Below, piece by piece: positions 5,969 through 25,245 of a stretch of DNA of 64,000 bases; the stretch's first letter is position 1; the number at the start of each line of letters is the position of its first letter. The stretch spans positions 1,178,001-1,242,000 of the forward strand of contig NZ_LT629786.1 in NCBI RefSeq assembly GCF_900105675.1, written 5' to 3'. The notes below the pieces were generated by a model, which made no database searches, had not been told where the DNA came from, and worked only from the letters and a program-made list of their open reading frames with translations. The translations under genes were made by a program, and so were the position numbers. This stretch comes from Pseudomonas synxantha (GTDB lineage Bacteria > Pseudomonadota > Gammaproteobacteria > Pseudomonadales > Pseudomonadaceae).

Positions 5969-5982
5969 GTACCCCCGACAGT

Positions 5983-7094
<1,112 letters not shown>

Positions 7095-7120
7095 TCGTAA
7101 CGAATCTTTAGGAGAGCAGG

Positions 7121-9499: not shown

Positions 9500-9502
9500 C
9501 GT

Positions 9503-9805
9503 ATGGGGGCTTTGACGAAAGCTGAGATGGCGGAACGTCTGTACGAAGAGTTGGGTCTGAACAAGCGCGAGGCCAAGGAATTGGTCGAGCTGTTTTTTGA
9601 AGAGATCCGCCACGCTCTGGAAGACAACGAACAGGTCAAGTTGTCCGGTTTCGGCAATTTTGACCTGCGGGACAAACGCCAGCGGCCTGGCCGCAATCCA
9701 AAAACGGGAGAAGAAATCCCGATCACGGCTCGCCGTGTGGTCACCTTTCGTCCAGGGCAGAAGTTAAAGGCCCGAGTTGAGGCTTATGCTGGAACCAAGT
9801 CATAA
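9503..9805 (+). CDS. ihfA: Integration host factor alpha subunit
   Basis: A 100-residue HU/IHF-fold protein beginning [20 protein letters not shown], with the beta-arm segment [26 protein letters not shown] and its DNA-intercalating proline. IHF bends DNA sharply and serves in recombination, replication and promoter architecture. The alpha rather than beta call rests on sequence and on its standard position after pheT. The gene overlaps the following MerR-like gene by 20 bases. Confidence 0.97.
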
Positions 9806-10142
9806 CGACGAGCTACCCGTCATCCCAGGCAAACGCTACTTCACCATTGGTGAAGTCAGCGAGCTGTGTGCGGTAAAGCCGCACGTGCTGCGCTATTGGG
9901 AGCAGGAGTTTCCTCAACTCAACCCCGTCAAACGCACCGGGAACCGTCGGTATTATCAGCGCCAGGATGTGCTGATGATCCGACAGATCCGCGCGTTGCT
10001 GTACGACCAGGGGTTCACCATCAGCGGCGCACGCCAGCGTATGTCCGGTGATGAAGCCAAAGACGACACCACCCAGTACAAGCAACTGATCCGCCAGATG
10101 ATCTCCGAACTGGAAGATGTGCTGGTGGTGCTGAAAAAATGA
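9786..10142 (+). CDS. MerR-family regulator (ihfA-linked, CueR-like fold)
   Basis: A 118-residue protein with an N-terminal MerR winged helix-turn-helix ([22 protein letters not shown], about residues 18-40) and a C-terminal coiled segment ([14 protein letters not shown]). There are no metal-binding Cys residues and no effector domain. This small MerR-like protein next to ihfA is conserved in pseudomonads, and its target is unknown to me. I chose the ATG at 9786 (MLEPSHND), inside the end of ihfA. The frame also has an ATG at 9777 (MRLM), which is less family-like. Confidence 0.85.
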
Positions 10143-10232
10143 TTCAAGCTTTAAAAATACTTCCACATTTCAAAAGCTTGCGGTATATTCCGATTCGCTT
10201 CGTTAAGAAGCGAACCCAGTAACACGCCTAGT

Positions 10233-10309
10233 CGGGGCGTAGCGCAGTCCGGTAGCGCACTAGCATGGGGTGCTAGGGGTCGAGTGTTCGAATCACTCCG
10301 TCCCGACCA
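10233..10309 (+). tRNA. tRNA-Pro (anticodon GGG)
   Basis: The 77-base sequence folds as a tRNA: acceptor stem CGGGGCG with CGTCCCG, anticodon stem CTAGC/GCTAG around the loop ATGGGGT (U33, GGG anticodon, G37), T-arm with TTCGAAT, and an encoded CCA end at 10307-10309. It reads Pro codons CCC and CCU. It lies 90 bases after the MerR-like gene, and an intrinsic terminator follows. The 3' end is a common target for integrating elements, and mobile-like remnants follow it here. Confidence 0.96.
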
Positions 10310-10322
10310 TATATTCTTAAAG

Positions 10323-10356
10323 AATCCAATCACTTAGCGGTGATTGGATTTTTTTA
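10323..10356 (+). terminator. Rho-independent terminator after tRNA-Pro
   Basis: Arms AATCCAATCAC and GTGATTGGATT with a short loop, followed by a run of T residues to 10356. It is positioned to end the tRNA transcript. Confidence 0.85.
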
Positions 10357-10654
10357 TGGCTGTCGGTTTTACGTGAAGTGGAAATTTGCCCCCACTTTTT
10401 GCCCCACTCAGAATCCTATATTTCTGTCGTGTGAAAACTTGAAGAGGTGCTGATAATTAGGGTGGGGGGCTGAGCGTCCAGCGCGATGTGACATTCAATC
10501 ATCGACCTCACTGATATCCAATGAGATGAGCCCCTCGAGTTCGGACGCAGCGCCAGGTTGCGGAAGCAGCTTCAACATAGCGAGCGGAGGTTGCTTGCGC
10601 TTTTGGAACGTCGCGCCAGCAACGGAATTACTCGGACGCCGAAGCTCCGGCGGC
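10357..10654. other. Gene-poor stretch behind tRNA-Pro
   Basis: No intact gene is supported. Near 10390-10407 there is a tandem CCCCCACTTTTTGCCCCAC sequence of the sort I recall upstream of integrases inserted at tRNA 3' ends, but no integrase reading frame survives. The minus strand 10495-10650 reads as protein-like residues ending ASELEGLISLDISEVDD, in the same frame as the start of the broken gene at 10655-11052. It may be the real C-terminus after a second frameshift. Confidence 0.45.
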
Positions 10655-11052
10655 TCAAGCGCCTGGTTCTCCGGGAAGCTCCACGGCATCGTCTAGGCTC
10701 GACGTGTCAGGAGGGTAATCCTGATCATGCTCAATGGAGCGTTCCTCTTCTAATTGGGCTTCTGGTCGTACTGGGGTAGGGGTCATGGCCCTGTGAGCCT
10801 CGACTTCCTGGGCGGCTAGCTCTAGAGAGTTGGAAGGTCCGACTTCTGGTGCGGAAGGTTGTGCCGGGTCACCCCCAAGATATTGGCCACACTAATTGTG
10901 ATCTGTTCGTTGCTTGGTCGCGTAATGATTGCAGCCAGCTGCTTTTGCGATAGGTGCGTTAGTTTTGCAGTCCGTGCTAAAGCACTCTTGCGCACTGTTT
11001 CGTACGCTTTTTCGATTTCACGTTCTTTGGGTTCCGCGGGTGATCTAGGCAT
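10655..11052 (-). pseudogene. Frameshifted gene of mobile-element type
   Basis: From ATG 11052 the frame codes for a basic, helical protein (MPRSPAEPKEREIEKAYETV, then LTHLSQKQLAAIITRPSNEQ) that runs to SVANILG at a run of five G on the coding strand (10872-10876). In that frame it stops at 10822. Reading one base back at the G-run gives a continuing open frame (GDPAQPSAPEVGPSNSLELA, later PTPVRPEAQLEEERSIEH) that ends at 10655. Six G instead of five would join both parts. I do not recognise the family. A sequencing error, a real mutation or programmed slippage are all possible. Confidence 0.5.
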
Positions 11053-11633
11053 AGGGATCACCTGTCAGGGTGACGCTCGCAGGCGCAGCAAGGTGCACAA
11101 AGCAATGCACTACCTGGCCAAGGATGAGAATACGCAGTACTTGAGGGTGAAACCCAGAGGGGCTCGATGTCTGCGTAAGGGGCAGTTGCGTACGCAGACG
11201 CCATGTATGTTGACGCCAACGAAGGCTCTCATTTGAAAGGCACTTGTCGCGGAGCTCTTCGATATATCTTTGGTTCATCCGTTACTTGGCAGCAGCGTGG
11301 TCGGCTCACCGATGAGAGGTTAACCACTTGCTCGAGCACTCTGGCCGGTGCTGTAGCCCCTATAGACTCAGTTCTTGAAACCCTGATACCAGCGAGTTAC
11401 TGAACGCAATGAAGACACTCACCAAGTGTGATATTTCGACATGTGAATACCTTTAGGCGGCTAACAAAGTGACTCGTGTGCGCCTGCTATCATGTTGATG
11501 TGACGCGACGGCGGAGTTCGGAAAACTCTTCGGGAACGAGGGTGATGTTCCGATAATGACGGGCAATCTCCGACTGCTGGCTGATTGAGCAAGTACAGCC
11601 AGTCAGAAGGAGATTTTATTTAAGTGACCCCAA
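11053..11633. other. No intact gene; possible gene fragment at 11490-11612 (-)
   Basis: Most of this stretch shows nothing supportable. On the minus strand between a TAA near 11613 and a TGA at 11490 the frame reads about 40 residues that look like real protein, including SQQSEIARHYRNITLVPEEF followed by SELRRRVTST. It has no start codon of its own, so it is best read as the C-terminal remnant of a lost gene. The family is not recognised. Confidence 0.4.
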
Positions 11634-12560
11634 CTAGTTGGTTATTAACTGAGGCTCCTGCCTTGGAAAGGCTAGATCATTGCCGGTAATGCGAATACAG
11701 TCTATGAAGGACTCAATGATGTGTGATTTACTTCGCTGGATGGGTCTGACAATGCTTACTGTAAAAGGAATGGAAGTTGAAAGCCTTCGAACTTGGAGGC
11801 CTTGGCTTGCATAAGCGTTCGCCGCAAGAGGGTTGATGATTGATACGCCCACCCCATGTAAAACCATCTGGCAAATAGTTGCCGAATTGTCGACTTCGAG
11901 GATTTGCCGACGATTGATGCCCTGTGTGCTGAACAGGTTGTCTAATTGATGCCGATAAGGATCGTTGGGTGCGAGATGGACGAAGGTGTGGTTCGCCAGG
12001 GAGGCTGGGTCGATTACCGTTTGGTGACACAGAGGGTGATGAGGAGGCAGTATGCAAACCTCATCAAGCCTCAGTAAAGGCTCAGCGATTGTCCCCATGG
12101 GGGCTGTGGAACCTTCGATCAAACCGAGATCATAGGACTGCGATGATAGACTTTCTTCTAATACGGGAGAGTCATGTGTGGTTAGGCTAATGTTCAATTC
12201 AGGATAATTTAAGAGGAACTTTGAAATCGAACCAGGGAGTAATGTTTGCGACAGAATGGGCAAGCTTGCAATGGTTATTTTTTCAAATAAGCCTTGTTTT
12301 ATTTCTGCGGCCGCTAGGCCGATTTTTAATAAGCCATCATAAGTTTTAGTTATTTCGTTGTAAAGGGCTAGACCCTGTCTGGTCGCTTTCAGTCGACCTT
12401 TGGATCTTTCGAATAATTGCATGCCTATGCAGCTTTCGAAGCTGGATAAGTCGCGGCTAACAGTCGGTTGTGAGGTGCCTAGCGCGTCAGCGGCTCCGGT
12501 AATGCTCCCGGACGCCATAACCGCTTTAAATATTTCAACGTGTCTTATTGAAACCTTCAT
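11634..12560 (-). CDS. LysR-type regulator of the amino-acid island
   Basis: A 308-residue LTTR with an N-terminal winged helix-turn-helix (ASGSITGAADALGTSQPTVS, about residues 16-35) and a two-lobed effector domain to the end. It resembles the branch containing LysR of lysA and the opine regulators NocR/OccR, which sense amino acids or opines. I chose ATG 12560 (MKVSIRH), with AGGGA upstream. The frame also opens at 12587. It lies beside an ATP-grasp gene read the other way and in the same island as a lysA copy, so lysine, diaminopimelate or an island product is a plausible effector (inference). It is A/T-rich compared with the core genes. Confidence 0.85.
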   Translation of the reverse strand: MKVSIRHVEIFKAVMASGSITGAADALGTSQPTVSRDLSSFESCIGMQLFERSKGRLKATRQGLALYNEITKTYDGLLKIGLAAAEIKQGLFEKITIASLPILSQTLLPGSISKFLLNYPELNISLTTHDSPVLEESLSSQSYDLGLIEGSTAPMGTIAEPLLRLDEVCILPPHHPLCHQTVIDPASLANHTFVHLAPNDPYRHQLDNLFSTQGINRRQILEVDNSATICQMVLHGVGVSIINPLAANAYASQGLQVRRLSTSIPFTVSIVRPIQRSKSHIIESFIDCIRITGNDLAFPRQEPQLITN

Positions 12561-13003
12561 GGTCAGTCCCTGATTGATTGGCAGCACGTTTTAATTTTAA
12601 GAAATTTCACAGAATAATTTTTTATTATTGAGGCGCCGAAGTCTCTAACTTTCGGACTGCGAGTCATCCACCCATTTGAGGCGGGGGGCAACGCGCCTAC
12701 CGGCTGAAATCCATGATCGCCGAGTGATGATACACCTGCGCATGCTAGTTATAAACTAATGGACACAATTTTAGTACGCAGGGAGGTGAATAGTCACCGC
12801 AGGGCAAACAGGCGAGTGCCAAGCACCAGGTGGTGACGCGGTTGCTACGGATTGCTATGATTGGTCGAAATTTACGATGAACCCAGTCGGGTTTTTATTG
12901 GATGAATGTTCAATTATAAAAATAGCGTTTCTATCGCTAGGAATCGCTAGAGTCATTTCAAAGGAACACGTGTTCCGCTCAATTAAAAAACAGGGAGTTA
13001 GAT
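12561..13003. promoter_or_regulatory. Divergent promoter region, LysR / ATP-grasp
   Basis: About 440 bases between two divergent genes, with no coding potential that I can support. A small hairpin AACCC/GGGTT followed by TTTATT at 12880-12898 could terminate or attenuate transcription toward the ATP-grasp gene. The last 50 bases before that gene are very A/T-rich. It is the natural place for LysR binding, though I cannot fix one T-N11-A site. Confidence 0.45.
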
Positions 13004-14269
13004 ATGGACTACGTACTGATGGTTGACTGCACGGATGTCACTTCGGCAATCATCATCGCCGCTAATAAAAGAGGAGTCGGCGTTATCTTTGTCAGGTCTG
13101 AGCTGACACGTAATCACACGTCGTTAACGAATGACTTCTTTAGTGAAAATGCTGTAGAGACTTACGATATCGAGTCGCCTCTTGATGCAAAAAAAATTGA
13201 AGAGGTCATGAGGCTCATCAGCAAAAAATATCCAATATCAGCCGTCTTTACCCCCCTTGACGATATTGTTGAACTGGTTGCTGCGGCAGCCAAGGGTGCG
13301 AACCTTAAAGGCACATCCCATCTAGGTGTGGCCAATGCCAAGAATAAGGGCCTGGCCCGGGAACTCCTTAAAGCCGAAAGGTTGACTCAATGTGGATATC
13401 GCACATGTCGAACGCTCGGCGAGCTGCCGGCGGCGGTGAGCTTTATAGGTTATCCCTGTATCGTCAAACCCGTGTCTGGATTTGCCAAATATCTGACGGC
13501 GCACCTTGAGACACCGCAAGACCTACGAAAATTCATGGATGAATATGTGTCGACGCGTAACGACATAGACAGCGCTTTTCGCACCTTTATTTCAGACGAG
13601 TACACCGTTGAGGAATATATCTGCGGGCAAATGTACTCTGCGGAAGTGGCGAAAAATGAGCACGGTTTTTATCCATTAATGCTGACTAAGCGCGATCGTG
13701 CAAAGCACAATGAGTTATTGGAGATTGAGTCAACCATGGCCCCGCGTGGCCACTATCCTGATGAGAGTGCGATTTTTGAATACTGTGAAAAAGTAGTCGA
13801 TTGCCTGAAACTTGATGTCGGTATTTTTCACATCGAGGTCATTGTCAACGAGGGGGGCGTTGATTTGGTTGAGGTGAACCCGCGTTTTATGGGGGGCGCT
13901 TTGTCGACGCTCTTTCAGAAATCCACATCGCTGAGTGCTTTTGATATTTTGCTGGATACCTATCTAGGGAAGGTTGTAGATGTTCAGACAAAATCTAGGC
14001 TGTTCTCTACTTCTCGGCGCCTCGCACCCATGGAGAAAACGGTTGCACAGGCTACTGTTGATGCGGGTTACATTAAAGAGCACTTTCCGTGGGTCAGGGA
14101 ACACTCAATTGCTATTCACAAAGGGCAGACGATATTACCGATGACCGGTAATGACTCCTCTCTGGGTTATATTCATATCGTTGCTGAACACTACTCGACT
14201 GCTCTGGATCAAGCCAAGGCGACGATCAATATGATTTCGGCCGCCACAGGTATCAAGTTAGCGAACTGA
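13004..14269 (+). CDS. ATP-grasp ligase (amino-acid/peptide ligase-like)
   Basis: A 421-residue ATP-grasp enzyme. Residues 1-110 form a Rossmann-like pre-ATP-grasp domain. The central ATP-binding part includes YPCIVKPVSGFAKYLTAHL and the EEYICGQMYSAEVA lid region. The metal-binding DLVEVNPRFMGGALS segment lies near 285-300. Enzymes of this type join a carboxylate, activated as acyl phosphate, to an amine, as in L-amino-acid ligases and carnosine-type synthases. The substrates cannot be read from the sequence. RBS GGGAG upstream. It stands between the LysR regulator and a convergent lysA copy. Confidence 0.85.
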   Translation: MDYVLMVDCTDVTSAIIIAANKRGVGVIFVRSELTRNHTSLTNDFFSENAVETYDIESPLDAKKIEEVMRLISKKYPISAVFTPLDDIVELVAAAAKGANLKGTSHLGVANAKNKGLARELLKAERLTQCGYRTCRTLGELPAAVSFIGYPCIVKPVSGFAKYLTAHLETPQDLRKFMDEYVSTRNDIDSAFRTFISDEYTVEEYICGQMYSAEVAKNEHGFYPLMLTKRDRAKHNELLEIESTMAPRGHYPDESAIFEYCEKVVDCLKLDVGIFHIEVIVNEGGVDLVEVNPRFMGGALSTLFQKSTSLSAFDILLDTYLGKVVDVQTKSRLFSTSRRLAPMEKTVAQATVDAGYIKEHFPWVREHSIAIHKGQTILPMTGNDSSLGYIHIVAEHYSTALDQAKATINMISAATGIKLAN

Positions 14270-14320
14270 AGTGGAAAAAATGGCTCCTATTCAATTGCTG
14301 AGTAGGAACCACAGCATGAG

Positions 14321-15580
14321 TTACAGCGCGTGCAGTAATTGTCCGGCTTCTAGCTCCAGCTTCAGAAGGTCGGCATAACTTTGGCGGTTTCTGATCACTT
14401 TCAGTTGGTCTCCATCTTTCAATACCTCCGGGAGCAACGGACGCGTATTGTAGTTTGACGACATGCTTGCACCATAAGCCCCACAATCATGAAAGATCAG
14501 CAGGTCACCAATCTCTACCTCGGGCAGGAGGTAGGAAATGACTTCCCCACCTTCCTTCTGAGTAAACACATCGCCTGACTCACAAAGGGGACCGGCAATC
14601 ACTGTCGGCCGTAGGCCTTCGCTCTTTATTTGCCCTGTTGGGCTCATAACACTCACACGATGGATTGAGCCATACATGGCCGGACGAATCAGATCGTTGA
14701 AACCGGCGTCCACGAGAACGAAGAAGTTCTGGCCCATGGGTTTGTAAGCCCGCACTTCTGCGACCAAGATTCCGGCTTGCGCAGCCAGATAGCGGCCAGG
14801 CTCGATTTCCAGGCTGACTGGGTGTCCCAGGAATTCTTCTATCTTCTGACGTGCTGAGTGCCAGAGCTGAAAATAATGCTCGGGGTCAATTTCCTCCTCA
14901 CGGTCAGTGTATGGAATCGACAGCCCGCCGCCCGCGGATATCGCTTCAATATCGACCCCCAGGAGCTTGACCTCGTTCACCATAGCGTCGCAGACACGCG
15001 CCAGATGCTCATAGTCGGCTCCCGAACCGATGTGCATGTGAAGGCCCACCAGTTTCAGCCCATGATGGTGAATCAACTCGATGCTGCTTTGGATTTCGGT
15101 GTGCCATATTCCGTGTTTACTGTGCTCTCCACCCGTATTCGTCTTGCGCGTGTGGCCATGACCGAACCCCGGATTGATCCGCAACCATACCTCATGCCCA
15201 GGGCTCAGGGCTCCCAACTGTTCAAGCATCTGCGGGGAGCCTGCGTTGACCGGGATCTTCAGTTCAACCAGGCGGGCTAGGGTGCCTGCGTCAATCAAGT
15301 CTGCGGTGAAAACGATGGGTGAGTGGGGGCCGTCAACGCAATAGCCCGCGCTCAGGGCACGCTCGACCTCTCCCAGCGACACGGAGTCGATCAACACGCC
15401 TTCTTCGCGCATCAGCGACAGGATGTGAATATTGGAGCAAGCCTTCTGCGCATAACGTATGAAATCGAAGGACTTCAGTTTTCTGATCTGCCGACGGATG
15501 ATTGGCGCGTCGTATAACCAGAGCGGCGTGCCAACTGAGTGGATCGCCGGGATGATTGAATCGAGTAGATCTTTTGTCAT
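14321..15580 (-). CDS. lysA: Diaminopimelate decarboxylase, enterobacterial-type second copy
   Basis: A 419-residue fold-type III PLP enzyme that converts meso-diaminopimelate to lysine. It matches E. coli LysA closely along its length: YAQKACSNIHIL holds the PLP lysine, then SVSLGEVERAL, GFGHGHTRKTNTGGEHSKHG, HMHIGSG, EPGRYL, the catalytic Cys in PLCESGD and GASMSSNYNTRPLLPEVL. The start at 15580 has AAGGA upstream. The frame opens earlier, inside the intergenic region. Pseudomonads carry their own lysA elsewhere near dapF (established), so this is probably an extra copy, either part of a biosynthetic route or a self-protecting isoform. Confidence 0.92.
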   Translation of the reverse strand: MTKDLLDSIIPAIHSVGTPLWLYDAPIIRRQIRKLKSFDFIRYAQKACSNIHILSLMREEGVLIDSVSLGEVERALSAGYCVDGPHSPIVFTADLIDAGTLARLVELKIPVNAGSPQMLEQLGALSPGHEVWLRINPGFGHGHTRKTNTGGEHSKHGIWHTEIQSSIELIHHHGLKLVGLHMHIGSGADYEHLARVCDAMVNEVKLLGVDIEAISAGGGLSIPYTDREEEIDPEHYFQLWHSARQKIEEFLGHPVSLEIEPGRYLAAQAGILVAEVRAYKPMGQNFFVLVDAGFNDLIRPAMYGSIHRVSVMSPTGQIKSEGLRPTVIAGPLCESGDVFTQKEGGEVISYLLPEVEIGDLLIFHDCGAYGASMSSNYNTRPLLPEVLKDGDQLKVIRNRQSYADLLKLELEAGQLLHAL

Positions 15581-15603
15581 GATAATCCTTAACGAGTGTG
15601 CGG

Positions 15604-15957
15604 TTACTGAGCAGCGCTGGCCGGACGGGTTGAAAACCAGCGGGCCGAACATAAAGTAAACAAAGCAACGATAATGAGACTGGCGATTACGGGGAGCGCG
15701 CTGACATGATCAATTGCGTACCCACCTGCCACCGCCACAACAGCCATGCCCAAAGGCGCAATCGAATGGAAGGTCACCATGACGACGCTGATCTCTTGTA
15801 CGGGTGTTTCGGTCAGCAGGTCATTGTAAGCACGCATGAAAACAACTTCGAAGATGAACATGAAAATAAAGTAGGTCGGTATGACAAGGGCGCTAGAGGA
15901 GACCAGGAAGGGTGCCGCCAGCGCCGCAAGCCCCAACATAAATGTTTGATCATTTGA
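15604..15957 (-). pseudogene. MFS transporter remnant, C-terminal part
   Basis: About 117 codons read as the last three to four membrane segments of a major-facilitator transporter: MLGLAALAAPFLVSSSALVI, TYFIFMFIFEVVFMRAYNDL, then APLGMAVVAVAGGYAIDHV and SLIIVALFTLC. There is no start codon or N-terminal half. Upstream the frame runs into the end of the adenylation gene in a different frame, near 15957. A deletion seems to have removed the first two thirds of this gene. It lies 23 bases before the lysA start in the same direction. Confidence 0.8.
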
Positions 15958-17518
15958 GAGAGAGTCGGATCCGGGCCTGGGTCTCAGTAGTGGGGCGAGT
16001 CTTGTCTTCCGACAACTCAAGTTCCCAAGAGTGTGACTCACGTAGTGTCTTGCGATCGACTTTGCCGTTATCGGTATAGGGAATGGCCTCTACCACCAGG
16101 AACCTGGCCGGTACCATGTAGTCGGGGAGGCGATCAGCCAAGCTGGTACGAATAGCCGCCGCGCTCAGTTCTACGCCGGGTTCGAATGTTAGATATGCCG
16201 AAAGACGGGTGTTGCCACTCGGCGCCCGAATGCCCACTACCACAGCTTCCTTTACCCCTGGGCAACGATTCAGGTGCGCCTCGATCTCTCCGGGCTCTAC
16301 GCGATGTCCGGCCACTTTCAACTGGTCGTCTATCCGTCCCAAAAGGTCGATGCGGCCATCAGCATCTTGTTTTGCGATGTCCCCTGTTCGGAACGCCATT
16401 CCGTATGGGGTATCGATAAAGCGTTCGCGGGTAAGCTCGGGCTGCTTGAAGTAGCCGTCGGCAATACCGGTGCCGGTGATGAGCAGTTCGCCAGGTTGTG
16501 CGTCGGTGACTTTGCGCAGCGACTCATCGACAATGATAGGCGTCAATTCCGCAGGGAAACCCACCGGCACGAAGCCGGCATATTCTTGTTCAGGGTGGCA
16601 CTCCCAATGGCAGCTATAAAGCGCTTCTGTCAGGCCGTACAGGTTGAACAATCGGGCGGGAATATCACAGGCGAAAAATCTTGAGGGAAGATCGCCAGGC
16701 ATTACATCGCTGCTACTGAACACATAGCGTAGCGTCCGGTTCTGTTTGAACTCAGGTTCTTCAATCATCCCGGCCAACAGGGCTGGCACCGCCAGGAATA
16801 CCGAGATCCGGCTCTGATTGATGGCATCGACCAGTTTCGACGGGCTTCTATGCTCGCCGGGCGGCAGTACAACGATCACGCAGCCTGACAGCAGAGGCCA
16901 GAAAATTTCCCGGACAAGGTTGGTGACGCTCAAGGTGGTGCGCAGTAACTGTCGGTCTTTTTTGCTTAGAGGGAATCGCGTTTGCAACCAGCGCTGTCCG
17001 CTGACCAAGGCGCGATGGGATAGCATGACCCCTTTAGGTTGCCCGGTGGAACCCGAGGTGTAAAACAAGAAGGCTAGGCTATCGGCGTCGACGGCAGGCA
17101 GGTTCTGCAGGTCGTGGGCGTGCAGCGTGTCAATGAGTCGAATCAGGGTCAGCCTGACTCCAGCCCATGAACCGACAAAGTGCTCGCTTGCCCGGTCTGT
17201 CACCAACGCCTGAGCGTCGGAATGGTTCAAGATCGCAGCTCGGCGCTCGTCCGTATCTTCCGGGTCGATGGGGACGCATGTGCAGCCGGCCTTGAGGATG
17301 CCAATGACCCCCGCCAGCATGTCCAATGATCGCGGAACCTGGATCGCAACTCTGCTACCGGTGGGGATGCCCTCGGCGATCAAGCTGCGTGCAACCTGGT
17401 CAGCCCGTTGTTCCAGTTGCGCATTGCTTATTGGTAAGTCATTGAACATCGCCGCTGTAGCGTCGGGAGCCAGCGTTGCTCGCGCAGTCAGAAAGTCATG
17501 TAAGCATTCGTTAAACAT
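15950..17518 (-). CDS. Stand-alone NRPS-type adenylation domain, carrier domain lost
   Basis: A 522-residue ANL enzyme. Core motifs are visible: A3 LFYTSGSTGQPKGVMLSH, A5 NLYGLTE, A7 FRTGDIAKQDADGRIDLLGR, A8 KVAGHRVEPGEIEAHLN and A10 YTDNGKVDRKTL with its catalytic Lys. Such domains activate an acid with ATP and pass it to a carrier thiol. After residue 510 the text ETQARIRLSLK begins like the first helix of a carrier domain and then stops, just where the MFS fragment starts in another frame. By eye the A4 region (LSVTNLVREIFWPLL) lacks the Asp that usually holds the alpha-amino group, so the substrate may be unusual. Confidence 0.85.
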   Translation of the reverse strand: MFNECLHDFLTARATLAPDATAAMFNDLPISNAQLEQRADQVARSLIAEGIPTGSRVAIQVPRSLDMLAGVIGILKAGCTCVPIDPEDTDERRAAILNHSDAQALVTDRASEHFVGSWAGVRLTLIRLIDTLHAHDLQNLPAVDADSLAFLFYTSGSTGQPKGVMLSHRALVSGQRWLQTRFPLSKKDRQLLRTTLSVTNLVREIFWPLLSGCVIVVLPPGEHRSPSKLVDAINQSRISVFLAVPALLAGMIEEPEFKQNRTLRYVFSSSDVMPGDLPSRFFACDIPARLFNLYGLTEALYSCHWECHPEQEYAGFVPVGFPAELTPIIVDESLRKVTDAQPGELLITGTGIADGYFKQPELTRERFIDTPYGMAFRTGDIAKQDADGRIDLLGRIDDQLKVAGHRVEPGEIEAHLNRCPGVKEAVVVGIRAPSGNTRLSAYLTFEPGVELSAAAIRTSLADRLPDYMVPARFLVVEAIPYTDNGKVDRKTLRESHSWELELSEDKTRPTTETQARIRLSLK

Positions 17519-17882
17519 ACCCTGGGCCTCTATCTATTCAAATCCATGTGATGCTGTCAAATTTTGCAGCGCCCAGTCGTTATGAAGACTTATACAGCGG
17601 TGCTGTAATAGGCATCTTCAAAGTGATGCAGGCTAAGTGAAAAGTTTGCGGACTGAGGTAGGTATAAGAAACGCACCGCCTACTTTGTGCCAAAGCTATA
17701 TCAAAACTGCAGAGAAGAAAAATATCCGATTTTCTGTAAGGTATTCGTTTTTGATATGGCTTGACAATATTATTTGCGTGCCTTCAGGATGAGTGAGTTG
17801 TGCGTTGACGTCAGTCTAATTAAGTTTTGAATTGAAGGGTTGTGGGCGGTTGTTTGGTCGGAATATTTTAACGGAATGGTAA
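17519..17882. promoter_or_regulatory. Divergent promoter region with a 14-bp inverted repeat
   Basis: This is 364 bases between the adenylation gene (minus) and the ACT-domain gene (plus). AAGCTATATCAAAA at 17693-17706 is repeated in inverted form as TTTTGATATGGCTT at 17749-17762, 13 of 14 positions matching, with 42 bases between. That makes a candidate regulator site with two half-operators. TTGACA at 17761 is a possible -35 box toward the ACT gene, but no good -10 is seen. Confidence 0.5.
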
Positions 17883-18314
17883 ATGGGTATGGTCAATTTT
17901 GAGTTGGTGTTCAGAGTGCACGCACCTGCGTATTCGATATATAAGTTGAAAGGTGTTCCAGAGGCTGCTTGCTTATCAGTGGGCACGGATTTTGTATCGT
18001 TATCGATTGCACTGAATGAAACCACTCTGATTTGCACGAGCAATATTCAACTCGCGGGTTGTGTAGTCGAGCAGGCCAGTCTTGCCTGGCGTTGCCTTGA
18101 AGTGGTCAGCGAACATCCAGCGGATGTCGTGGGTTTGATAGCCTTTGTCAGTAATACTTTAGCCGGCGCAGGTATCAGTATGCTGACGATTTCCTCTTTT
18201 GCCGGTGACTACTTTTTTGTAAAAGAAAAGTCGCTCGATCACGCCATCACGGTACTGAGTGCCGCGGGTAGCATCTTTACCTCTATTACCGAGCCGCAGG
18301 GGTGCGCAGAGTGA
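17883..18314 (+). CDS. ACT-domain protein (CASTOR-like)
   Basis: A 143-residue protein. The C-terminal half (ADVVGLIAFVSNTLAGAGIS, then MLTISSFAGDYFFVKEKSLDHAI) is a typical ACT domain of the type in aspartate-kinase regulatory parts and CASTOR proteins. The N-terminal half resembles a second, diverged ACT fold. ACT domains bind amino acids and give allosteric control. A free-standing one in a cluster with LysA suggests sensing of lysine or a related amino acid (inference). It is coupled to the next gene, whose preferred GTG start overlaps this stop. Confidence 0.75.
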   Translation: MGMVNFELVFRVHAPAYSIYKLKGVPEAACLSVGTDFVSLSIALNETTLICTSNIQLAGCVVEQASLAWRCLEVVSEHPADVVGLIAFVSNTLAGAGISMLTISSFAGDYFFVKEKSLDHAITVLSAAGSIFTSITEPQGCAE

Positions 18315-19363
18315 GTCAAGTACGCTCATTGGAGGACCTCGCCGAATTGGGGAGGAAGGTCTGTGCCGTAGAGCCTGTCTTATTGGAGGGTAAATACAGT
18401 TTTACCAAAGACCGAGAGGTTTATTTGCGAGCCACGTTGGTCAGGAGGCTGGATCTGGAGGTTCGCATGCAGGACTGGGTGGCCTCCCGCGTTTCTGCAG
18501 ACATGCTGCTTTCTCGCCTCTCCCACCGTTGTCGCTTGGGCGAAAGGGTGCAATGGCCACAGCACTTTCCAGTACAGATCGTCGACTCCGATTACAATGC
18601 TGCATTGTTGAATAATGTGTTTCTCTATTTTCCGTTCGGGGCCGGACTTCGCAGCGAAGAAGAACAACATATATTCGGCTTCGAACTGGTAGCGGTGTCC
18701 ACCAGGATTTTCAATGAAATACATATTCCGGCATTGGAAATTATCGGTTCGAAAAATGCAAAGGCGTTAGTTGAAGAACGGCTTTCCAAACGATTAGAAG
18801 AGGTTGTTTGCCTGTACTCCCTGTTGCATGAAATGTGTCATCGGGTTGGCGTGTGGCGAGTGATTCCTTCAAAAGACAAATCGTTGTGCATCAGTGGCAT
18901 GAACCTAGCGATTGTTGGAGAGCTCTGGGCTGATCTACAGCTTGTTGAAAATGCCAAGGAATTCCCGGAGCTTGTGCTGTTCATCTTTTTGAATCGTATT
19001 TTCTGGTATGCCCGCAAGGGATATAGCGTCAGCGTACAGCACGGTGACTTGAACACTGACAATGATGCTTGGGGCGGGGTTTACCTGTGGGTGAGGTTGC
19101 GCGACGCCGGGGCCCTCTCCATTAATCAGGTGACTGGAAAGTTGGATTTCGAGTTGGACGCTATGGCGGATGTATTCAGTGCCTGTTATCGGGAACTTGA
19201 GGCGTTAGGGGCATCCTGCCTTGAAGCGGGAGCCGAAGGGGATGCGCTCGTCAATCAATGGAAGTTGAGTGTGTTGTCTGGTGCCCTTGAGCAACAAGTT
19301 TTGCCCTTTGAGTTGCAGGAAATTTATGCGCTGTGCAGGGGAGTGCCTGAATCGTTTCATTGA
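18311..19363 (+). CDS. HExxH-motif protein of unknown family
   Basis: A 350-residue soluble protein whose family I do not recognise. Residues 173-177 are HEMCH in SLLHEMCHRVG, followed about 27 residues later by GELWAD, a spacing and Glu seen in gluzincin-type metalloenzymes. It could be a peptidase, an amidase or a non-proteolytic metal protein. There is no signal peptide. The second half has WGGVYLWVRLRDAGALSI and a helical tail. The start is probably the GTG at 18311, overlapping the ACT stop as GTGA with AGGGG 8 bases before it. GTG 18302 is in frame too. It is read together with the ACT gene and probably the reductase and methyltransferase genes. Confidence 0.65.
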   Translation: MSQVRSLEDLAELGRKVCAVEPVLLEGKYSFTKDREVYLRATLVRRLDLEVRMQDWVASRVSADMLLSRLSHRCRLGERVQWPQHFPVQIVDSDYNAALLNNVFLYFPFGAGLRSEEEQHIFGFELVAVSTRIFNEIHIPALEIIGSKNAKALVEERLSKRLEEVVCLYSLLHEMCHRVGVWRVIPSKDKSLCISGMNLAIVGELWADLQLVENAKEFPELVLFIFLNRIFWYARKGYSVSVQHGDLNTDNDAWGGVYLWVRLRDAGALSINQVTGKLDFELDAMADVFSACYRELEALGASCLEAGAEGDALVNQWKLSVLSGALEQQVLPFELQEIYALCRGVPESFH

Positions 19364-19419
19364 TGTAATTGTGTCGTATCGAGTTTGCTCAGGCTTGTTT
19401 CATACATAAAGGACTGTTT

Positions 19420-20214
19420 ATGAGAACTATACATATGTTGGGCGCAGGGCACATGGGGGGAGCCATTCTTTACGGCCTTCGCCAACAACTGAAGGGTACT
19501 GATAGTCTTCGTGTCATCGAGGTTGATGCCGAACGTAGCGCCCGGTATTCCAGTGATGGTTTCCAAGTCAGTACCCGCCTCGAAACGATTGAGGATGACG
19601 ACATTATTGTTCTGGCAGTTCCTCCGCAGCGGTTCGCGCAGGCGTTGATGCAGAACGAACGACTCAAACGGCATCGCGGCCCGGTTATTTCCGTCATGGC
19701 AGGCATTACTTTGAATACGCTGACCCGTGAGTTGGGACATTGCAACGTCGTGCGTTCGATTCCCAACACACCGTCGCAGGTGGGGGAAGGCGTGACGCTG
19801 TATTACGCCCCGAAGTCAGCCAGTCCTGAGCTGACATCTGCTGCACAGCAGGTGTTCGGTGCAATCGGCGTTGTGATTCGTGTTGAGGACGAAACGCAGA
19901 TTGATTCAGGTACGGCCCTGGGCGGTGGCGGCCCAGCGTTGGTTGCTTTTTTTGCCGACGCCTTGCAGGAGTATGCTCATGACGAAGGTTTCGATGCCCA
20001 ACAGGCTGCGCTGATTGCCACTCAGTTACTGCACGGCACTGCCCGGTTGATACGTGAAACCGGCAAGCCCGCGTGGCAAGTCTGTAAGGATGTACAGACC
20101 AAAGGCGGTACAACGGAGCGTGCCATCGATACGTTCATTGATGCGGATCTCAAGGGTATCGTCAAGGCAGCCCTACAGGCGGCGGCGCGTCGCTCGGTAG
20201 AGCTGGGACAATAA
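19420..20214 (+). CDS. Pyrroline-5-carboxylate reductase-like enzyme (ProC family)
   Basis: A 264-residue NAD(P)-dependent imine reductase, near the usual ProC length. The N-terminal Rossmann motif is MLGAGHMGGAILYGL. VMAGITLNTL, VVRSIPNTPSQVGEGVTLYY and the C-terminal dimer region with GGTTERAIDTF all fit the family. The usual reaction is pyrroline-5-carboxylate to proline. Relatives reduce piperideine carboxylate to pipecolate or other cyclic imines. In this island, beside LysA, a lysine-derived imine is a sensible guess, not shown. I chose ATG 19420 (RBS AAAGGA). The frame also opens at 19369. Confidence 0.85.
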   Translation: MRTIHMLGAGHMGGAILYGLRQQLKGTDSLRVIEVDAERSARYSSDGFQVSTRLETIEDDDIIVLAVPPQRFAQALMQNERLKRHRGPVISVMAGITLNTLTRELGHCNVVRSIPNTPSQVGEGVTLYYAPKSASPELTSAAQQVFGAIGVVIRVEDETQIDSGTALGGGGPALVAFFADALQEYAHDEGFDAQQAALIATQLLHGTARLIRETGKPAWQVCKDVQTKGGTTERAIDTFIDADLKGIVKAALQAAARRSVELGQ

Positions 20215-20232
20215 CCAGAAAAGGATAGCCCG

Positions 20233-20940
20233 ATGAGTGCTCAGGTAAACTTGCAATCAGACTCTCCGAACATCGATCCTCAGCCGAAGGAGGATGTCAG
20301 TTATTCCCTCTATTTTGGTTTGGGTCAGTCACTCACGCTTTTGGATCACCCTGAAGTGTTCAAGGTCAGCGCAGCCGGAAAAGCATTCGGTTCATTATTG
20401 ACAAGGCGCTTCGGAAGGCAATACGCCGATGCTCGCTTTCTCGATATAGGAACGGGCAGTGGAGTGCACTCGCTGCTTTTGCGCCGCCTGGGCATGAAGT
20501 CGGTCACTGCCACGGACATTTCAGCCCAGGCTATCGACGTGGCGAAGATCAATGAGGTCGCCAATCTTGGCACTGAGGATGTCCGGTTTATCCTCAGTGA
20601 TCTGTTTGATGGCATGGACCCCACCACCGACGCCTTTGATGTGATTCTGTTCAACCCGCCAGGCTGGCAGACCCCGTCGACAGAGTTTCTACAGGCACTG
20701 CAACACTCGGAGTCTGCCCAGGGGCTGGCCATTGAGGCGATGTTTTATGGTGATCGCACGCTCAAGCGCTTCTTTGATGAAGTGCCTTTATTTCTCAAAT
20801 CTGGCGCAAAACTTATCATTGGTCTGAACTCGCTGGTGGGCATTCCGGCCGTGATGCAGGCATTGTGTCAAAAACACGATGCCGATTACCACATTGACTG
20901 GTGCTTGTTAGGGAATCCTGGCCTGATGTCCACGCGGTAG
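20233..20940 (+). CDS. SAM-dependent methyltransferase, HemK/PrmA-like, C-terminus probably replaced
   Basis: A 235-residue class I methyltransferase. Motif I is LDIGTGSGVHSLLLRR (about residue 72) and motif IV is NPPGW in VILFNPPGWQTPS. An NPP(Y/W)-type motif usually marks methylation of planar nitrogens in amino acids, bases or small molecules. It sits 18 bases after the ProC-like gene with AGGAT upstream. The last residues (LLGNPGLMSTR) overlap, on the other strand, the start of a DUF1203 gene, so the native C-terminus was probably lost at the island edge near 20,900. Confidence 0.78.
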   Translation: MSAQVNLQSDSPNIDPQPKEDVSYSLYFGLGQSLTLLDHPEVFKVSAAGKAFGSLLTRRFGRQYADARFLDIGTGSGVHSLLLRRLGMKSVTATDISAQAIDVAKINEVANLGTEDVRFILSDLFDGMDPTTDAFDVILFNPPGWQTPSTEFLQALQHSESAQGLAIEAMFYGDRTLKRFFDEVPLFLKSGAKLIIGLNSLVGIPAVMQALCQKHDADYHIDWCLLGNPGLMSTR

Positions 20941-21032: not shown

Positions 21033-21287
21033 GTGTGGCTCCTGTCGTTTGTGTCTGCGCATAAGACAGGCACCCTCGCAGGCTCGCTATCCGTTTCTTG
21101 CCTTCAAATTCCTTAGGAGATGACCGCTGGATGGGTTGTAGGAGTGCTTAAGCGAAGCAGCTACCACCCTTACGCCCCAACACAGCCTTCCGATCCTCCG
21201 TTCGTCCAATGCCCGGCACTCGCAGCTACAGGCCAAGTCCAATGGTTTAAGTGCGTATTTGTCGTGCTTTTACAGCGGAGAGACAGC

Positions 21288-21485
21288 ATGGAAATCAACG
21301 AGAACGCCCCAGGCAATATTTCACAGCAGGCAGTAACGCGCGGCACGGACAACGAGACCGGTCATGATCCAAAGCGCGATGAGGAGCATGTCCCGTTGCC
21401 ACCGGACGATGAGGCACCCCTCGAGGAAGATATGTCGGACGTGGACGCTGCCGACTCAGTAGCCAGTGAGCATCCTGATAACTGA
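21288..21485 (+). CDS. Small acidic hypothetical protein (65 aa)
   Basis: ATG 21288 has GGAGAG 7 bases upstream. The 65-residue product is polar and acidic (PLPPDDEAPLEEDMSDVDAA), with no membrane segment and probably no stable fold alone. I know no function. The frame extends back to 21120, but those residues look non-coding. A small terminator follows, which supports a separate transcription unit. Confidence 0.6.
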   Translation: MEINENAPGNISQQAVTRGTDNETGHDPKRDEEHVPLPPDDEAPLEEDMSDVDAADSVASEHPDN

Positions 21486-21522: not shown

Positions 21523-21877
21523 GCCTAATAGGCCATTGGCTTTTCAGCGTTAGAAGCTGGATAGATCGACGTACAAGTCGCTGTCGGGGCTCGGTTTGCA
21601 TTTAAATGCCAGCGCAAAATAATTACGCTATTGTCGGCATGAGGCTTATCGAAAAGGCCGAGAAGTTAAAGCAACCCAGCTGCGGAGACTGATATGCGTG
21701 CCGAAGACATTCTCGCCGACGACACAAACGAAGCAACATTTGAAGGCGTGACCGTACGTAAAGGGACGGTGGGCGCCTTTTTGGCAAACGTACGGGTTTG
21801 GAGTGATTCGGACGCGAGCATGGATGATCAACTGCTAGCCGAGCGCGAGATTATTCAATCTTTACCCGCTCTAAAGG

Positions 21878-23301
21878 CCAGCCCTTTCAAGGTCTTCTGT
21901 AAAATCCCCCTGAAATTTCATTCAGGGGATACCTAAACGATGTGGGCGGAAGTTCTAGCGCGTTTCGAGAAAAAAGCACCTGCCAGTGTCATGGCCAAAC
22001 TGGCGCTGCAGCAGGCTATTGCCCCCGAGTGGATTGATCAGGTTTTCGAAGAACACCGGCAACGGCAGTATTCTCGTGAGCTATTGTTCTCGACCATCAT
22101 CAAGCTAATGTCCCTTGTTTCATTGGGTTTTAAGCCATCTCTGCACGCCGCCGCGCGACAACTGGAAGACCTTCCTGTTAGCCTGGCGGCGCTCTACGAC
22201 AAGATCAGTCGTACCGAGCCTGCTCTGTTGCGCGCCCTGATTACGGGCTGTGCACAGCGCCTGGCTCCAACCATCCGGGAACTGGGCTGCACGGCGATGC
22301 TGCCGGGCTGGCAGGTTCGGGTAGTGGATGGTAATCACCTGGCATCCACTGAGAAACGTCTGGGAGCTTTACGCAACGAGCGCGGCGCCGCTCGTCCCGG
22401 TTTTTCGGTTGTTGCATACGATCCCGATCTGGATCAGGTCGTCGACCTTCAGGCGTGTGAGGATGCCTACGCAAGCGAGCGCGTTTGTGTGCTGCCTTTA
22501 TTGGCCAATGCCGAGCCCGGCCAAGTGTGGCTGGCTGACCGGCTTTATTGCACGCTCCCGGTTATGGAGGCTTGTGAGCAAGTCCAAACTTGCTTTGTCA
22601 TTCGTCAGCAAGCCAAGCATCCACGTTTGATTCAAGAGGGTGAGTGGCAAGAGCCAGTACCTGTGGAAACTGGCACTGTGCGTGAGCAGATCATCCAGGT
22701 CAAAGGCGGTTACCAATGTCGGCGTGTCGAACTGACGCTTCATTCGCCAACGGACTCCGGCGACAGCAGCTTGATGTTCTGGAGCAACCTGCCTGAGAGC
22801 GTCAGTGCACAACAGATCGCCGAACTGTATCGCCGCCGCTGGAGCATTGAAGGTATGTTCCAGCGACTGGAAGCGATCCTGGAAAGTGAGATCGAAACCC
22901 TTGGCAGCCCAAAGGCTGCCTTACTCGGGTTCGCAACGGCGGTATTGGCTTACAACGTCCTGGCTGTTCTCAAACGCAGTGTTGAACAAGCTCATCGGGA
23001 TACCCAGCCTGAAGGATGGGAAGTCTCGATTTACCATTTAGCGGTTCAGGTCAGGAGTGGATATGAGGGAATGCAGATTGCGCTGCCCTCGGAACATCTT
23101 CCTGTCATTCCGTTGGAAAAACTGGCTCAGCACTTATTGGCGCTTGCCAAAAATATCCAACCTAAACAAGTTGCGAAAAGCCCCCGTGGCCCCAAGGTAC
23201 CCAAGCCCAAAACATGGGTTAAAGGCACCGCGGTGAATGCGCATGTTTCAACGGACAGGGTACTTAAGGCTGCCAAAACGAAAAGACCTTGAAAGGGCTG
23301 G
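21878..23301 (+). mobile_element. IS4-family insertion sequence, 1424 bp
   Basis: The terminal inverted repeats are CCAGCCCTTTCAAGGTCTTC at 21878-21897 and its near-perfect inverse at 23282-23301 (19 of 20 positions). Both ends are flanked by CTCTAAAGG (21869-21877 and 23302-23310), a 9-base target duplication, or 10 if an ambiguous G is counted. One transposase gene fills the element, and its stop lies in the right repeat. It interrupts a small gene and shows no second cargo gene. Confidence 0.93.
21940..23292 (+). CDS. IS4-family transposase
   Basis: A 450-residue DDE transposase. The acidic triad is visible as Asp in VRVVDGNHLAS, Asp in VWLADRLYC and Glu in YRRRWSIEGMFQRLE, the last being the Y-(2)-R-(3)-E signature of IS4 enzymes. 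The basic tail ends KAAKTKRP inside the right inverted repeat. It appears full length, so the element may still be active. Confidence 0.95.
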   Translation: MWAEVLARFEKKAPASVMAKLALQQAIAPEWIDQVFEEHRQRQYSRELLFSTIIKLMSLVSLGFKPSLHAAARQLEDLPVSLAALYDKISRTEPALLRALITGCAQRLAPTIRELGCTAMLPGWQVRVVDGNHLASTEKRLGALRNERGAARPGFSVVAYDPDLDQVVDLQACEDAYASERVCVLPLLANAEPGQVWLADRLYCTLPVMEACEQVQTCFVIRQQAKHPRLIQEGEWQEPVPVETGTVREQIIQVKGGYQCRRVELTLHSPTDSGDSSLMFWSNLPESVSAQQIAELYRRRWSIEGMFQRLEAILESEIETLGSPKAALLGFATAVLAYNVLAVLKRSVEQAHRDTQPEGWEVSIYHLAVQVRSGYEGMQIALPSEHLPVIPLEKLAQHLLALAKNIQPKQVAKSPRGPKVPKPKTWVKGTAVNAHVSTDRVLKAAKTKRP

Positions 23302-23448: not shown

Positions 23449-24945
23449 TCACCTGGCATGACGCTGCGAGCGAACCGTTGCTCCTCTGATCACATCTGTG
23501 CGAATGGCCGACGGTTGGCCAGCGTTGTTGCGTGCATAGCTGCATAACGTGATCGGCAACTCTGCTATGTCAATGAAAATGCCGTCCATGGCCAGGGTGT
23601 AGCGATCGTCGTCAATATCGCCACATGTGGTGCTGACCGCCGCGTTCACGCTGTAGTAGTAATGCTGGCTGAAACCGTTGTGCTGGGTTTCCCAGGCGAC
23701 GTGATAGCGGTGCTTGAGCTGCGGTGCCGGTGCCGGGTTGGTCAGGAATACCGAATGGGTGAACGCATTGCGCAGCAGCGCTTCGGTCAGCGGCTGCTCG
23801 GCCTTTTGCACCCCGAGTATGCACAGCACATGCGGCCCCAGCTCTGGGCCGATGGGCTGATTGATGTAGGCTTCATCAGAGGCGGCAGCCACTTGGTAAC
23901 CGTGCGTGCGTGCGCAATCGCTGATGTCATTCACGGCTTTGAATCGATAGAACGGTTCCTGGATTGAAAACCTCAGGTTCCAGGTCGGACGAATAATTTT
24001 GTCGGCGGCGTCACGTTGTAAATGCACATAGGGTTTCAGGTTCCACGGTTCGTCCAGCGTGATTTCAACGGCCTTGAGCTGGCAGGTCGGGGTGTCGTTA
24101 CGGAAAACGCCGTCTACAAAGCAGTAGTACAAGTCGTTGGCGGGGTAGCTGTAGTTGAATTTGGCAGCTTCGCACGCCGAGTTGTTCTGGCAGCTATTGA
24201 GAATGTCCTTCTGAATGGCAGACGCGACTTTGCTGATGATGCTGGTGATTTCATTGGTGTTACGGTCCAGCATCGGACTGCCGGAGCTGCCTGGACGCAG
24301 GCCGTTGCAGCGGTTGCGCAAGGCGCTGGGGAACACGCCGGGATGTTCGGCAAAACTGTTGAGGGTCGACTCTACGCAGGCACTCATGCGCAGGCCTTTT
24401 TTCAGGAATCCGGTCGGCGCTCCCACGTTAATCACTTCTCGATCCGACGTCTGCCGTTGGGAGGCCAGCTTGAGTGGCATGATCGCGCCGGCCACCAGCA
24501 CGCCCAGTGATGTATCCAGTTCGAGCACGGCCAGGTCAGTGCCCGCCATGCTGCTCCAATGTGCTGTCTTGACTGTGTAGGTGACACGCTGTTCGGGCGT
24601 GTCATGAAAGTAATTGAAGGTCACCTCGGCGGTAAATGCCTGGCGCACGCGCGCCGTACCGTAGCTGTAGAACACACAATGCCCGGCGGTCAGCACATAA
24701 GCCGGGCCGACGGCCTTACCCTGGCGGTTGCGCGTGTCGAGCAGAACGGCATTGCAGGTCTGGCCTAAGGCGTTTTTCAGTGAACCGATGCCGGTCCACT
24801 GCGGATACCGTTGGTTTTTATTTTCAAGTGCCACGGAAGGTGACTGTTCAGTAAGTCCCTCAGCCAGGTCTCTGGCGTGGCTGGGCCAGACAGTGCCGAG
24901 CAACAGGAAATACAGGATGACGCAGGCGGTGTGAGTAAGTGACAT
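23449..24945 (-). CDS. Exported trypsin-like serine protease
   Basis: About 498 residues. A signal peptide (MSLTHTACVILYFLLLGTVW, cut near SHA-RD) is followed by a chymotrypsin-fold domain: His in VLTAGHC, Asp in AGTDLAVLELD and Ser in RPGSSGSPML. The last 230 residues form an extra domain with several Cys and the segment NGFSQHYYYSVNAAVSTTCG, with no family that I recognise. It probably acts in the periplasm or outside the cell. I chose ATG 24945, with GAGG 9 bases upstream. In-frame ATGs at 24957, 24969 and 24990 would lengthen the signal region. Confidence 0.82.
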   Translation of the reverse strand: MSLTHTACVILYFLLLGTVWPSHARDLAEGLTEQSPSVALENKNQRYPQWTGIGSLKNALGQTCNAVLLDTRNRQGKAVGPAYVLTAGHCVFYSYGTARVRQAFTAEVTFNYFHDTPEQRVTYTVKTAHWSSMAGTDLAVLELDTSLGVLVAGAIMPLKLASQRQTSDREVINVGAPTGFLKKGLRMSACVESTLNSFAEHPGVFPSALRNRCNGLRPGSSGSPMLDRNTNEITSIISKVASAIQKDILNSCQNNSACEAAKFNYSYPANDLYYCFVDGVFRNDTPTCQLKAVEITLDEPWNLKPYVHLQRDAADKIIRPTWNLRFSIQEPFYRFKAVNDISDCARTHGYQVAAASDEAYINQPIGPELGPHVLCILGVQKAEQPLTEALLRNAFTHSVFLTNPAPAPQLKHRYHVAWETQHNGFSQHYYYSVNAAVSTTCGDIDDDRYTLAMDGIFIDIAELPITLCSYARNNAGQPSAIRTDVIRGATVRSQRHAR

Positions 24946-25245
24946 AAGGGGCCTCGACATAGAAGTCATTGATTGGCTGAAATTACCCAATCAGGCCAAG
25001 GCAGGAGGCATACATGACTATTGCGTAACCCTTGGTGCGAGTGCGGATTGAAGTTGAAAGCCGATCACGTCGGGTCCATCAGCGACCGGGCGTTCGTCCT
25101 GGCGTCTTGGCAGCGAACCGTCAGTGTGATTTTTATAGCTTTATTGGGGAGTGGTCAGTGCACCCGCATTGCTCACTCTCATCGCTTGCGCTAGCCCTCT
25201 ATTTTGCTATCTTGCCCGCTCGTATCGCAGTGGAAGCATCGAAGC

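What the first reader, a model, noticed from the sequence alone, without database searches (positions are those of the whole stretch)
11634..20940. Undescribed amino-acid biosynthetic island built around a second LysA, an ATP-grasp ligase and a free adenylation domain
Seen: LysR, ATP-grasp, LysA (enterobacterial type), A domain, MFS remnant, ACT, HExxH protein, ProC-like reductase and methyltransferase, in an A/T-rich block between a tRNA-Pro and a cut DUF1203 gene. Known: ATP-grasp and A domains activate carboxylates, and the tabtoxin cluster pairs LysA-like and ATP-grasp enzymes with an MFS exporter. Inference: the island made a lysine- or DAP-derived small molecule, with LysA as a precursor enzyme or resistant target and the ACT protein as sensor. 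I know no described cluster with this set.
Basis: partly seen in the sequence, partly recalled or inferred. Interest (0 to 1): 0.85.

Follow-up and report, generated by a model that had tools for sequence, protein, structure and literature searches.

The report
Gutted cluster for hydrazine-type peptide
This stretch is the wreck of a larger gene set whose intact copies in other Pseudomonas look built to make an unknown small molecule with a rare nitrogen-nitrogen bond; a deletion of about 11,000 bases removed the core here, and two neighbouring genes that seemed to belong come from a different gene set.

The parts
10233..10309 (+). tRNA-Pro (ggg); left edge of a hypervariable insertion site
   Evidence: ARAGORN; similarity to 5 of 5 nearest relatives fetched ends at 10313-10347
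11634..12587 (-). LysR-type regulator
   Evidence: NF008239 358.1 bits, cut-off 288; 81-85% to G026/G029
13004..14269 (+). ATP-grasp protein, L-amino acid ligase-like
   Evidence: ATP-grasp_4; PDB 3vot E 8.7e-11; 81-84% in G026/G029
14321..15652 (-). second LysA, E. coli type (true start probably about 15580, by comparison with G029)
15604..15963 (-). C-terminal 124 residues of an MFS exporter (400 residues in relatives)
   Evidence: tblastn 73-78%; blastn edge
15959..15969 (.). deletion junction; the two sides are 10,951 bp (G029) and 10,953 bp (G026) apart in relatives
15968..17518 (-). A domain = residues 1-517 of NRPS1 (1150 residues, A-T-C-T, in relatives); carrier and condensation domains lost
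17883..18314 (+). ACT_7 domain protein, overlaps the next gene by 4 bp
   Evidence: PF13840; overlap in 3 of 3 loci
18311..19363 (+). HExxH protein with predicted PolE (Fe/pterin oxidase) fold
19365..19368 (.). right end of the block shared with relatives
19420..20214 (+). ProC-like reductase, second unrelated remnant
20233..20940 (+). methyltransferase, about 50 residues shorter at its C-terminus than its relative in L057, second unrelated remnant

Best explanation
Positions 11634-19363 are a probably transferred, internally deleted copy of a hydrazine-type NRPS cluster. In the intact copies LysA, with its LysR, would raise lysine supply; the SidA-type monooxygenase would make N6-hydroxylysine; the MetRS-like protein would adenylate a second amino acid and ester-link it to the hydroxylamine; cupin 2 would rearrange the ester into a hydrazine. 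NRPS1 (A-T-C-T) and NRPS2 (Cy-A-T-TE, Cys-like A code) would build this unit, or something made from it, into a cysteine-containing peptide that the TE releases and the MFS protein exports. The ACT/HExxH pair would oxidise an amino-acid building block in the manner of PolE, and the ATP-grasp would join an amino acid. Shown from sequence: anatomy, synteny, deletion, motifs; predicted: the PolE fold. Inferred: every reaction, their order, and the product. In this genome the core is gone, so the pathway cannot run as such; LysR, ATP-grasp, LysA, ACT and HExxH remain open frames.
For: All 12 genes stand in one order in both relatives, and the window's seven match them on both sides of one cut. HExxH (70% or more) and ATP-grasp (80% or more) occur in the same 3 of 398 Pseudomonas genomes. 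Deleted genes: Lys_Orn_oxgnase, Cupin_2, tRNA-synt_1g, Condensation, AMP-binding, PP-binding, Thioesterase. Cupin 2 has H56, H58, E62, H96 in both relatives, spaced like RHS1 D63, H65, E69, H103 (passage); RHS1 itself (5uqp) matches at E 1.7e-4. MetRS-like protein keeps HVGH and KFSTS but is under the cut-off of all seven methionine--tRNA ligase models listed. NRPS1 is 50% identical over its length to a Streptomyces angustmyceticus NRPS beside the same trio. Lysine-supply genes in the azaserine cluster are a published parallel (passage).
Against: No reaction or product is shown. 5uqp is only the ninth-ranked of 23 cupin matches. The N-hydroxylase is only slightly closer to a lysine enzyme (MbtG 306 bits) than to an ornithine one (282). 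The 12 genes include no Spb39/Tri27-type FAD oxidase as in the hydrazinoacetate pathways, so how the conjugate is used is unclear. The Cy motif lacks its first Asp (hand reading). The HExxH protein fails the DUF6421 profile and Foldseek ranks DPP III slightly ahead of PolE.
Confidence: 0.75

Rival explanations
1. LysA is a self-resistance copy: the product attacks DAP decarboxylase (hydrazines trap PLP, recalled), and LysR-LysA is kept after the pathway dies because it still protects against producers.
For: In G066 an independent remnant beside gyrB keeps LysR and LysA intact while ATP-grasp between them and nearly all else are gone. LysA is intact in 4 of 4 loci read and very unlike the genome's own LysA (37%).
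Against: LysR plus LysA is a self-contained regulator-enzyme pair and could persist for lysine supply. Other window genes are also intact, and dN/dS is low for all six genes tested with no clear excess of constraint on LysA (0.08-0.11). No target data.
Confidence: 0.15
2. The retained genes (LysR, ATP-grasp, LysA, ACT, HExxH) still form a smaller working pathway without the N-N core.
For: All five are open, with low dN/dS against the relatives, and P. syringae-group proteins 96-97% identical to HExxH and ATP-grasp exist.
Against: The deletion may simply be young, and dN/dS mostly reflects time before it. Exporter and synthetases are cut.
Confidence: 0.07
3. The cluster makes the phytotoxin tagetitoxin, since P. 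syringae pv. tagetis holds the MetRS-like gene.
For: A MetRS-like orthologue, 77% identical to that of G029, is named from pv. tagetis.
Against: By name, none of the insertion loci in Table 5 of PMC11760712 is a gene of this cluster (section 7 read). Tagetitoxin is called specific to that pathovar there (passage), while this cluster is in P. viridiflava and HS6. It is recalled to lack an N-N bond.
Confidence: 0.03

Closest known systems
MetRS-like/cupin hydrazine synthetases with a lysine N6-hydroxylase (PyrN, Spb40, Tri28, RHS1; PMC8664883, PMC11705231; predicted as a group in PMC2922099; passages read)
   Same: Intact relatives carry the trio, the cupin metal-ligand positions and the adenylation motifs
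   Different: No FAD oxidase or saccharopine dehydrogenase among the 12 genes; extra LysA/LysR, ATP-grasp, PolE-fold/ACT pair, second cupin and two NRPSs. The window copy has lost the trio
Azaserine (azs) cluster (PMC10445470, passages read)
   Same: Hydrazine synthetase plus a Cy-A-CP NRPS and genes thought to supply lysine
   Different: Cys-like instead of Ser A domain, TE included, A-T-C-T NRPS in front, no succinylation genes seen
Streptomyces angustmyceticus plasmid p1 cluster (L084, undescribed as far as I searched)
   Same: NRPS1 50% identical over its length, beside N-hydroxylase, cupin and MetRS-like protein
   Different: Hydrolase and MATE exporter; LysE and a LysR not related to the window's beyond the general family; no second NRPS, LysA, ATP-grasp, ACT or HExxH among the features annotated in the stretch
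PolE (DUF6421), Fe/pterin L-Ile desaturase of polyoxin (PMC12614342, abstract and passages read)
   Different: No DUF6421 profile match; 26 instead of 21-23 residues before the Glu; gene coupled to a separate ACT protein

Membership tests
MetRS-like/cupin hydrazine synthetase cluster (intact relatives) | N-hydroxylase, cupin and MetRS-like gene side by side | tested here: met
   G026 and G029, same order
MetRS-like/cupin hydrazine synthetase cluster (window copy) | the same trio | tested here: not met
   deleted; the two sides of the gap are contiguous at 15963/15968
MetRS-like/cupin hydrazine synthetase cluster (intact relatives) | four metal-ligand positions of the cupin | tested here: met
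   H56, H58, E62, H96 with the spacing of RHS1 D63, H65, E69, H103; His in place of Asp at the first
MetRS-like/cupin hydrazine synthetase cluster (intact relatives) | adenylation motifs of MetRS kept, but not the housekeeping MetRS | tested here: met
   HVGH, KFSTS; below all seven methionine--tRNA ligase cut-offs listed
MetRS-like/cupin hydrazine synthetase cluster (intact relatives) | N-hydroxylase specific for lysine; N-N product | tested here: inconclusive
   MbtG (Lys) 306 bits, ornithine enzyme 282 bits; activity not testable here
Hydrazinoacetate pathways (s56-p1, triacsin, azaserine) | FAD oxidase (Spb39/Tri27 type) beside the trio | tested here: not met
   none among the 12 genes by Pfam and reading
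PolE / DUF6421 | Pfam DUF6421 profile | tested here: not met
   no family at E up to 5; a G370 protein that does match it (61.8 bits) is 23% identical to the window protein (E 4e-8)
PolE / DUF6421 | HE/DxxH followed after 21-23 residues by Glu | tested here: not met
   HExxH in 7 of 7 sequences, next Glu after 26 residues in 7 of 7
PolE / DUF6421 | PolE fold | tested here: met
PolE / DUF6421 | Fe and pterin dependence | not testable with these tools
   needs an assay
Diaminopimelate decarboxylase (LysA) | equivalog cut-off | tested here: met
   TIGR01048 382.5 against 297.9
Tabtoxin cluster | its gene set | not tested
   no tabtoxin sequence was fetched; the intact relatives answer the question more directly

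The most novel reading that the evidence does not exclude
Intact copies make an unknown hydrazine-containing, cysteine-derived peptide in plant-associated Pseudomonas, using an undescribed Fe/pterin oxidase subfamily (PolE fold, outside DUF6421) controlled by a separate ACT subunit, much as aromatic amino-acid hydroxylases carry a built-in ACT domain (recalled). LysR-LysA doubles as immunity against the PLP-trapping product and so outlives the cluster in non-producers.
Probability: 0.12. Interest if true: 0.8.

Novelty: new variant of a known kind. Interest (0 to 1): 0.5.

Why it matters
It turns an odd gene list into a known kind of pathway with two intact source loci, so that the product can be looked for. 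It adds a hydrazine-synthetase NRPS architecture with a Cys-type Cy module and a candidate Fe/pterin oxidase subfamily paired with an ACT protein. It also shows that the window's own copy is dead and that two of the nine genes are bystanders, which saves work on the wrong strain and the wrong genes.

Tried and rejected
Single-island view: rejected on synteny. Protease reading of HExxH: no Pfam match and PolE fold by VIA-align, although Foldseek lists two DPP III chains first by E-value (9.4e-8 and 1.2e-7, SnPolE 2.3e-7); a PDB profile search with the 7-sequence alignment found no relative (best E 0.22), so the PolE link rests on the predicted fold and the G370 bridge. Tagetitoxin: no support. 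Decay by dN/dS: 0.05-0.20 in all pairs of six genes, no clear difference between remnant and intact copies, and many dS values exceed 1. Plasmid origin: HExxH not in 72,556 plasmid records at E 1e-5. A second copy of the tRNA-Pro 3' 24 bases: none in the genome within 2 mismatches, so no integration event is proven. ATP-grasp of a Pantoea trio cluster: only 20% identical to the window's. Papers holding 'Pseudomonas sp. HS6': 2, unrelated by their listing. A-domain codes (NRPS1 T-N-R-A-F-S-L-Y-S-K, no Asp first; NRPS2 D-L-F-N-L-S-L-I-W-K) were read by hand against recalled PheA positions; the Cys match, the Cy motif and the C motif are recalled. All soft.

Rows dropped: 81 of 144 genomes matched; apart from G000, G026, G029 and G066 these were partial LysA matches, short A-domain matches or one 28-base match, and were not used. 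In one search, 368 of 398 genomes matched the methyltransferase, mostly weakly; 21 besides the own genome had E 1e-40 or better, 4 of those 21 were fetched. In one search seven further ATP-grasp matches of 27-30% were not used. In one search, 568 proteins passed, 120 were listed; few were used. G370 (27%) served only as a bridge. In one search short matches far to the right (30-63 kb) were set aside.

Full report
What is in the window. The window is part of a 6.84-Mb Pseudomonas chromosome (G000). Its pheT-ihfA region is 93% identical to the nearest genomes of the panel (G017, G067) but 81% to P. viridiflava (G026; 115 genomes), so it is probably not a P. syringae-group strain. Directly behind tRNA-Pro (10233-10309) similarity to all five nearest relatives fetched ends at 10313-10347, and those five share little with each other there: a hypervariable site.

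Two remnants, not one island. The block 11633-19368 has two close relatives in a panel of 398 Pseudomonas genomes: G026 and G029, found with HExxH (76 and 75%) and again with ATP-grasp (81 and 84%). G026 is P. viridiflava p23.C6 by its 54,866-bp contig; G029 is Pseudomonas sp. HS6 by a protein whose contig has the same length, 6,547,752. Similarity begins at 11633 or 11674 and ends at 19365 or 19368, that is, close to the LysR and HExxH stops. ProC-like and methyltransferase lie outside it. They form a pair in 4 of 4 other Pseudomonas loci fetched (L057-L060), in L057 next to EamA and DAO-family genes; here the methyltransferase is about 50 residues short and no EamA gene was found downstream. 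At DNA level neither gene was found in 143 other relatives, apart from one 34-base match in G059 inside the methyltransferase (its other matches lie further right).

The deletion. Window positions 15963 and 15968 lie 10,951 bp apart in G029; 15959 and 15969 lie 10,953 bp apart in G026. Missing here and present in both relatives, in one order: T-C-T of NRPS1, NRPS2 (Cy-type condensation, A, T, TE), a Cupin_3 protein, a Lys/Orn N-monooxygenase, a Cupin_2 protein, a MetRS-like protein and the first 276 of 400 residues of the MFS exporter. The 'free adenylation domain' and the 'MFS remnant' are the two sides of this cut. Orthologues of the MetRS-like protein exist elsewhere, among them Pseudomonas sp. 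UV AK001 (91%) and P. syringae pv. tagetis (77%).

What the intact cluster does (inference from families). N-hydroxylase, cupin and MetRS-like protein form a published trio that joins N6-hydroxylysine to an amino acid through an N-N bond (PMC8664883, PMC11705231, passages; seen as a conserved gene group, with P. syringae listed, in PMC2922099, passages). Cupin 2 has H56, H58, E62 and H96 in both relatives, spaced like RHS1 D63, H65, E69 and H103, and RHS1 (5uqp) is a direct though not the best sequence match. The MetRS-like protein keeps its adenylation motifs but stays under all seven methionine--tRNA ligase cut-offs listed; 1 of its 120 listed relatives is a fusion with a cupin (P0109), as in PyrN. 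The best structural relative of the N-hydroxylase is the lysine enzyme MbtG, narrowly ahead of an ornithine enzyme. NRPS1 is 50% identical over its length to an NRPS in Streptomyces angustmyceticus that sits beside the same trio, an independent association. Its A domain lacks the usual Asp in both, which suggests a substrate without a normal alpha-amino group; the A domain of NRPS2 reads like a Cys code, but its Cy motif lacks the first Asp, so a thiazoline is not assured. These three are hand readings.

LysA. It is a true, E. coli-type LysA with a LysR of NF008239 (that this model covers E. coli LysR is recalled), 37% identical to the genome's other LysA. Lysine supply for N6-hydroxylysine is the simplest role and has a published parallel in azs (PMC10445470, passages). 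Resistance is a rival: in G066 an independent wreck next to gyrB keeps only LysR, LysA and scraps. dN/dS does not decide.

Transfer. HExxH and ATP-grasp are 96 and 97% identical to proteins named from P. syringae pv. helianthi and genomosp. 7, while the host's housekeeping region is far from P. viridiflava. The other three loci read (G026, G029, G066) are not at tRNA-Pro. Recent horizontal transfer is likely; DNA of the P. syringae copies could not be fetched.

Literature. Searches for this gene set listed no paper describing it, judged from listings and, for the papers named above, passages; two searches listed only 20 of 33 and 10 of 82, and the library lacks most subscription journals. By name, none of the insertion loci of the pv. 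tagetis study is in this cluster (PMC11760712, section 7 read).

Verdict. Observation partly confirmed, interpretation partly supported. The finding is a dead remnant of a new variant of a known kind of pathway; its interest lies in the intact relatives.

Noticed in passing
L035 (G066:C46) 7148-9772: An independent remnant of the same cluster beside gyrB: LysR and LysA intact, ATP-grasp between them gone, plus about 107 bp and 68 bp of sequence from the ACT-upstream and NRPS1 regions.
   Followed up: partly
L057 (G081) 5820-13890: ProC-like and methyltransferase genes stand with a LysR (59% to the window's), EamA, DAO, radical SAM and PhyH genes: another possible amino-acid cluster.
   Followed up: no
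L008 (G370) 8055-13098: A DUF6421 gene beside prephenate-dehydratase-like, EamA and ATP-grasp genes and what reads like an aminotransferase: PolE family and ATP-grasp in another setting.
   Followed up: partly
L085 (Pantoea agglomerans pAR24_C) 8357-16413: The N-hydroxylase/cupin/MetRS-like trio on a plasmid typed as conjugative, followed by FAD oxidoreductase, MFS, ATP-grasp and GNAT genes.
   Followed up: partly
window 21198-21485: DNA 67-79% similar to many other Pseudomonas genomes although the frame 21120-21485 has no Pfam match above cut-off.
   Followed up: no
window 21940-23292: IS4-family transposase gene; 70 bases at 21866-21935 recur at 94% elsewhere in the genome.
   Followed up: no
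window 23449-24990: Trypsin-like protease gene right of the block.
   Followed up: no
   Followed up: no
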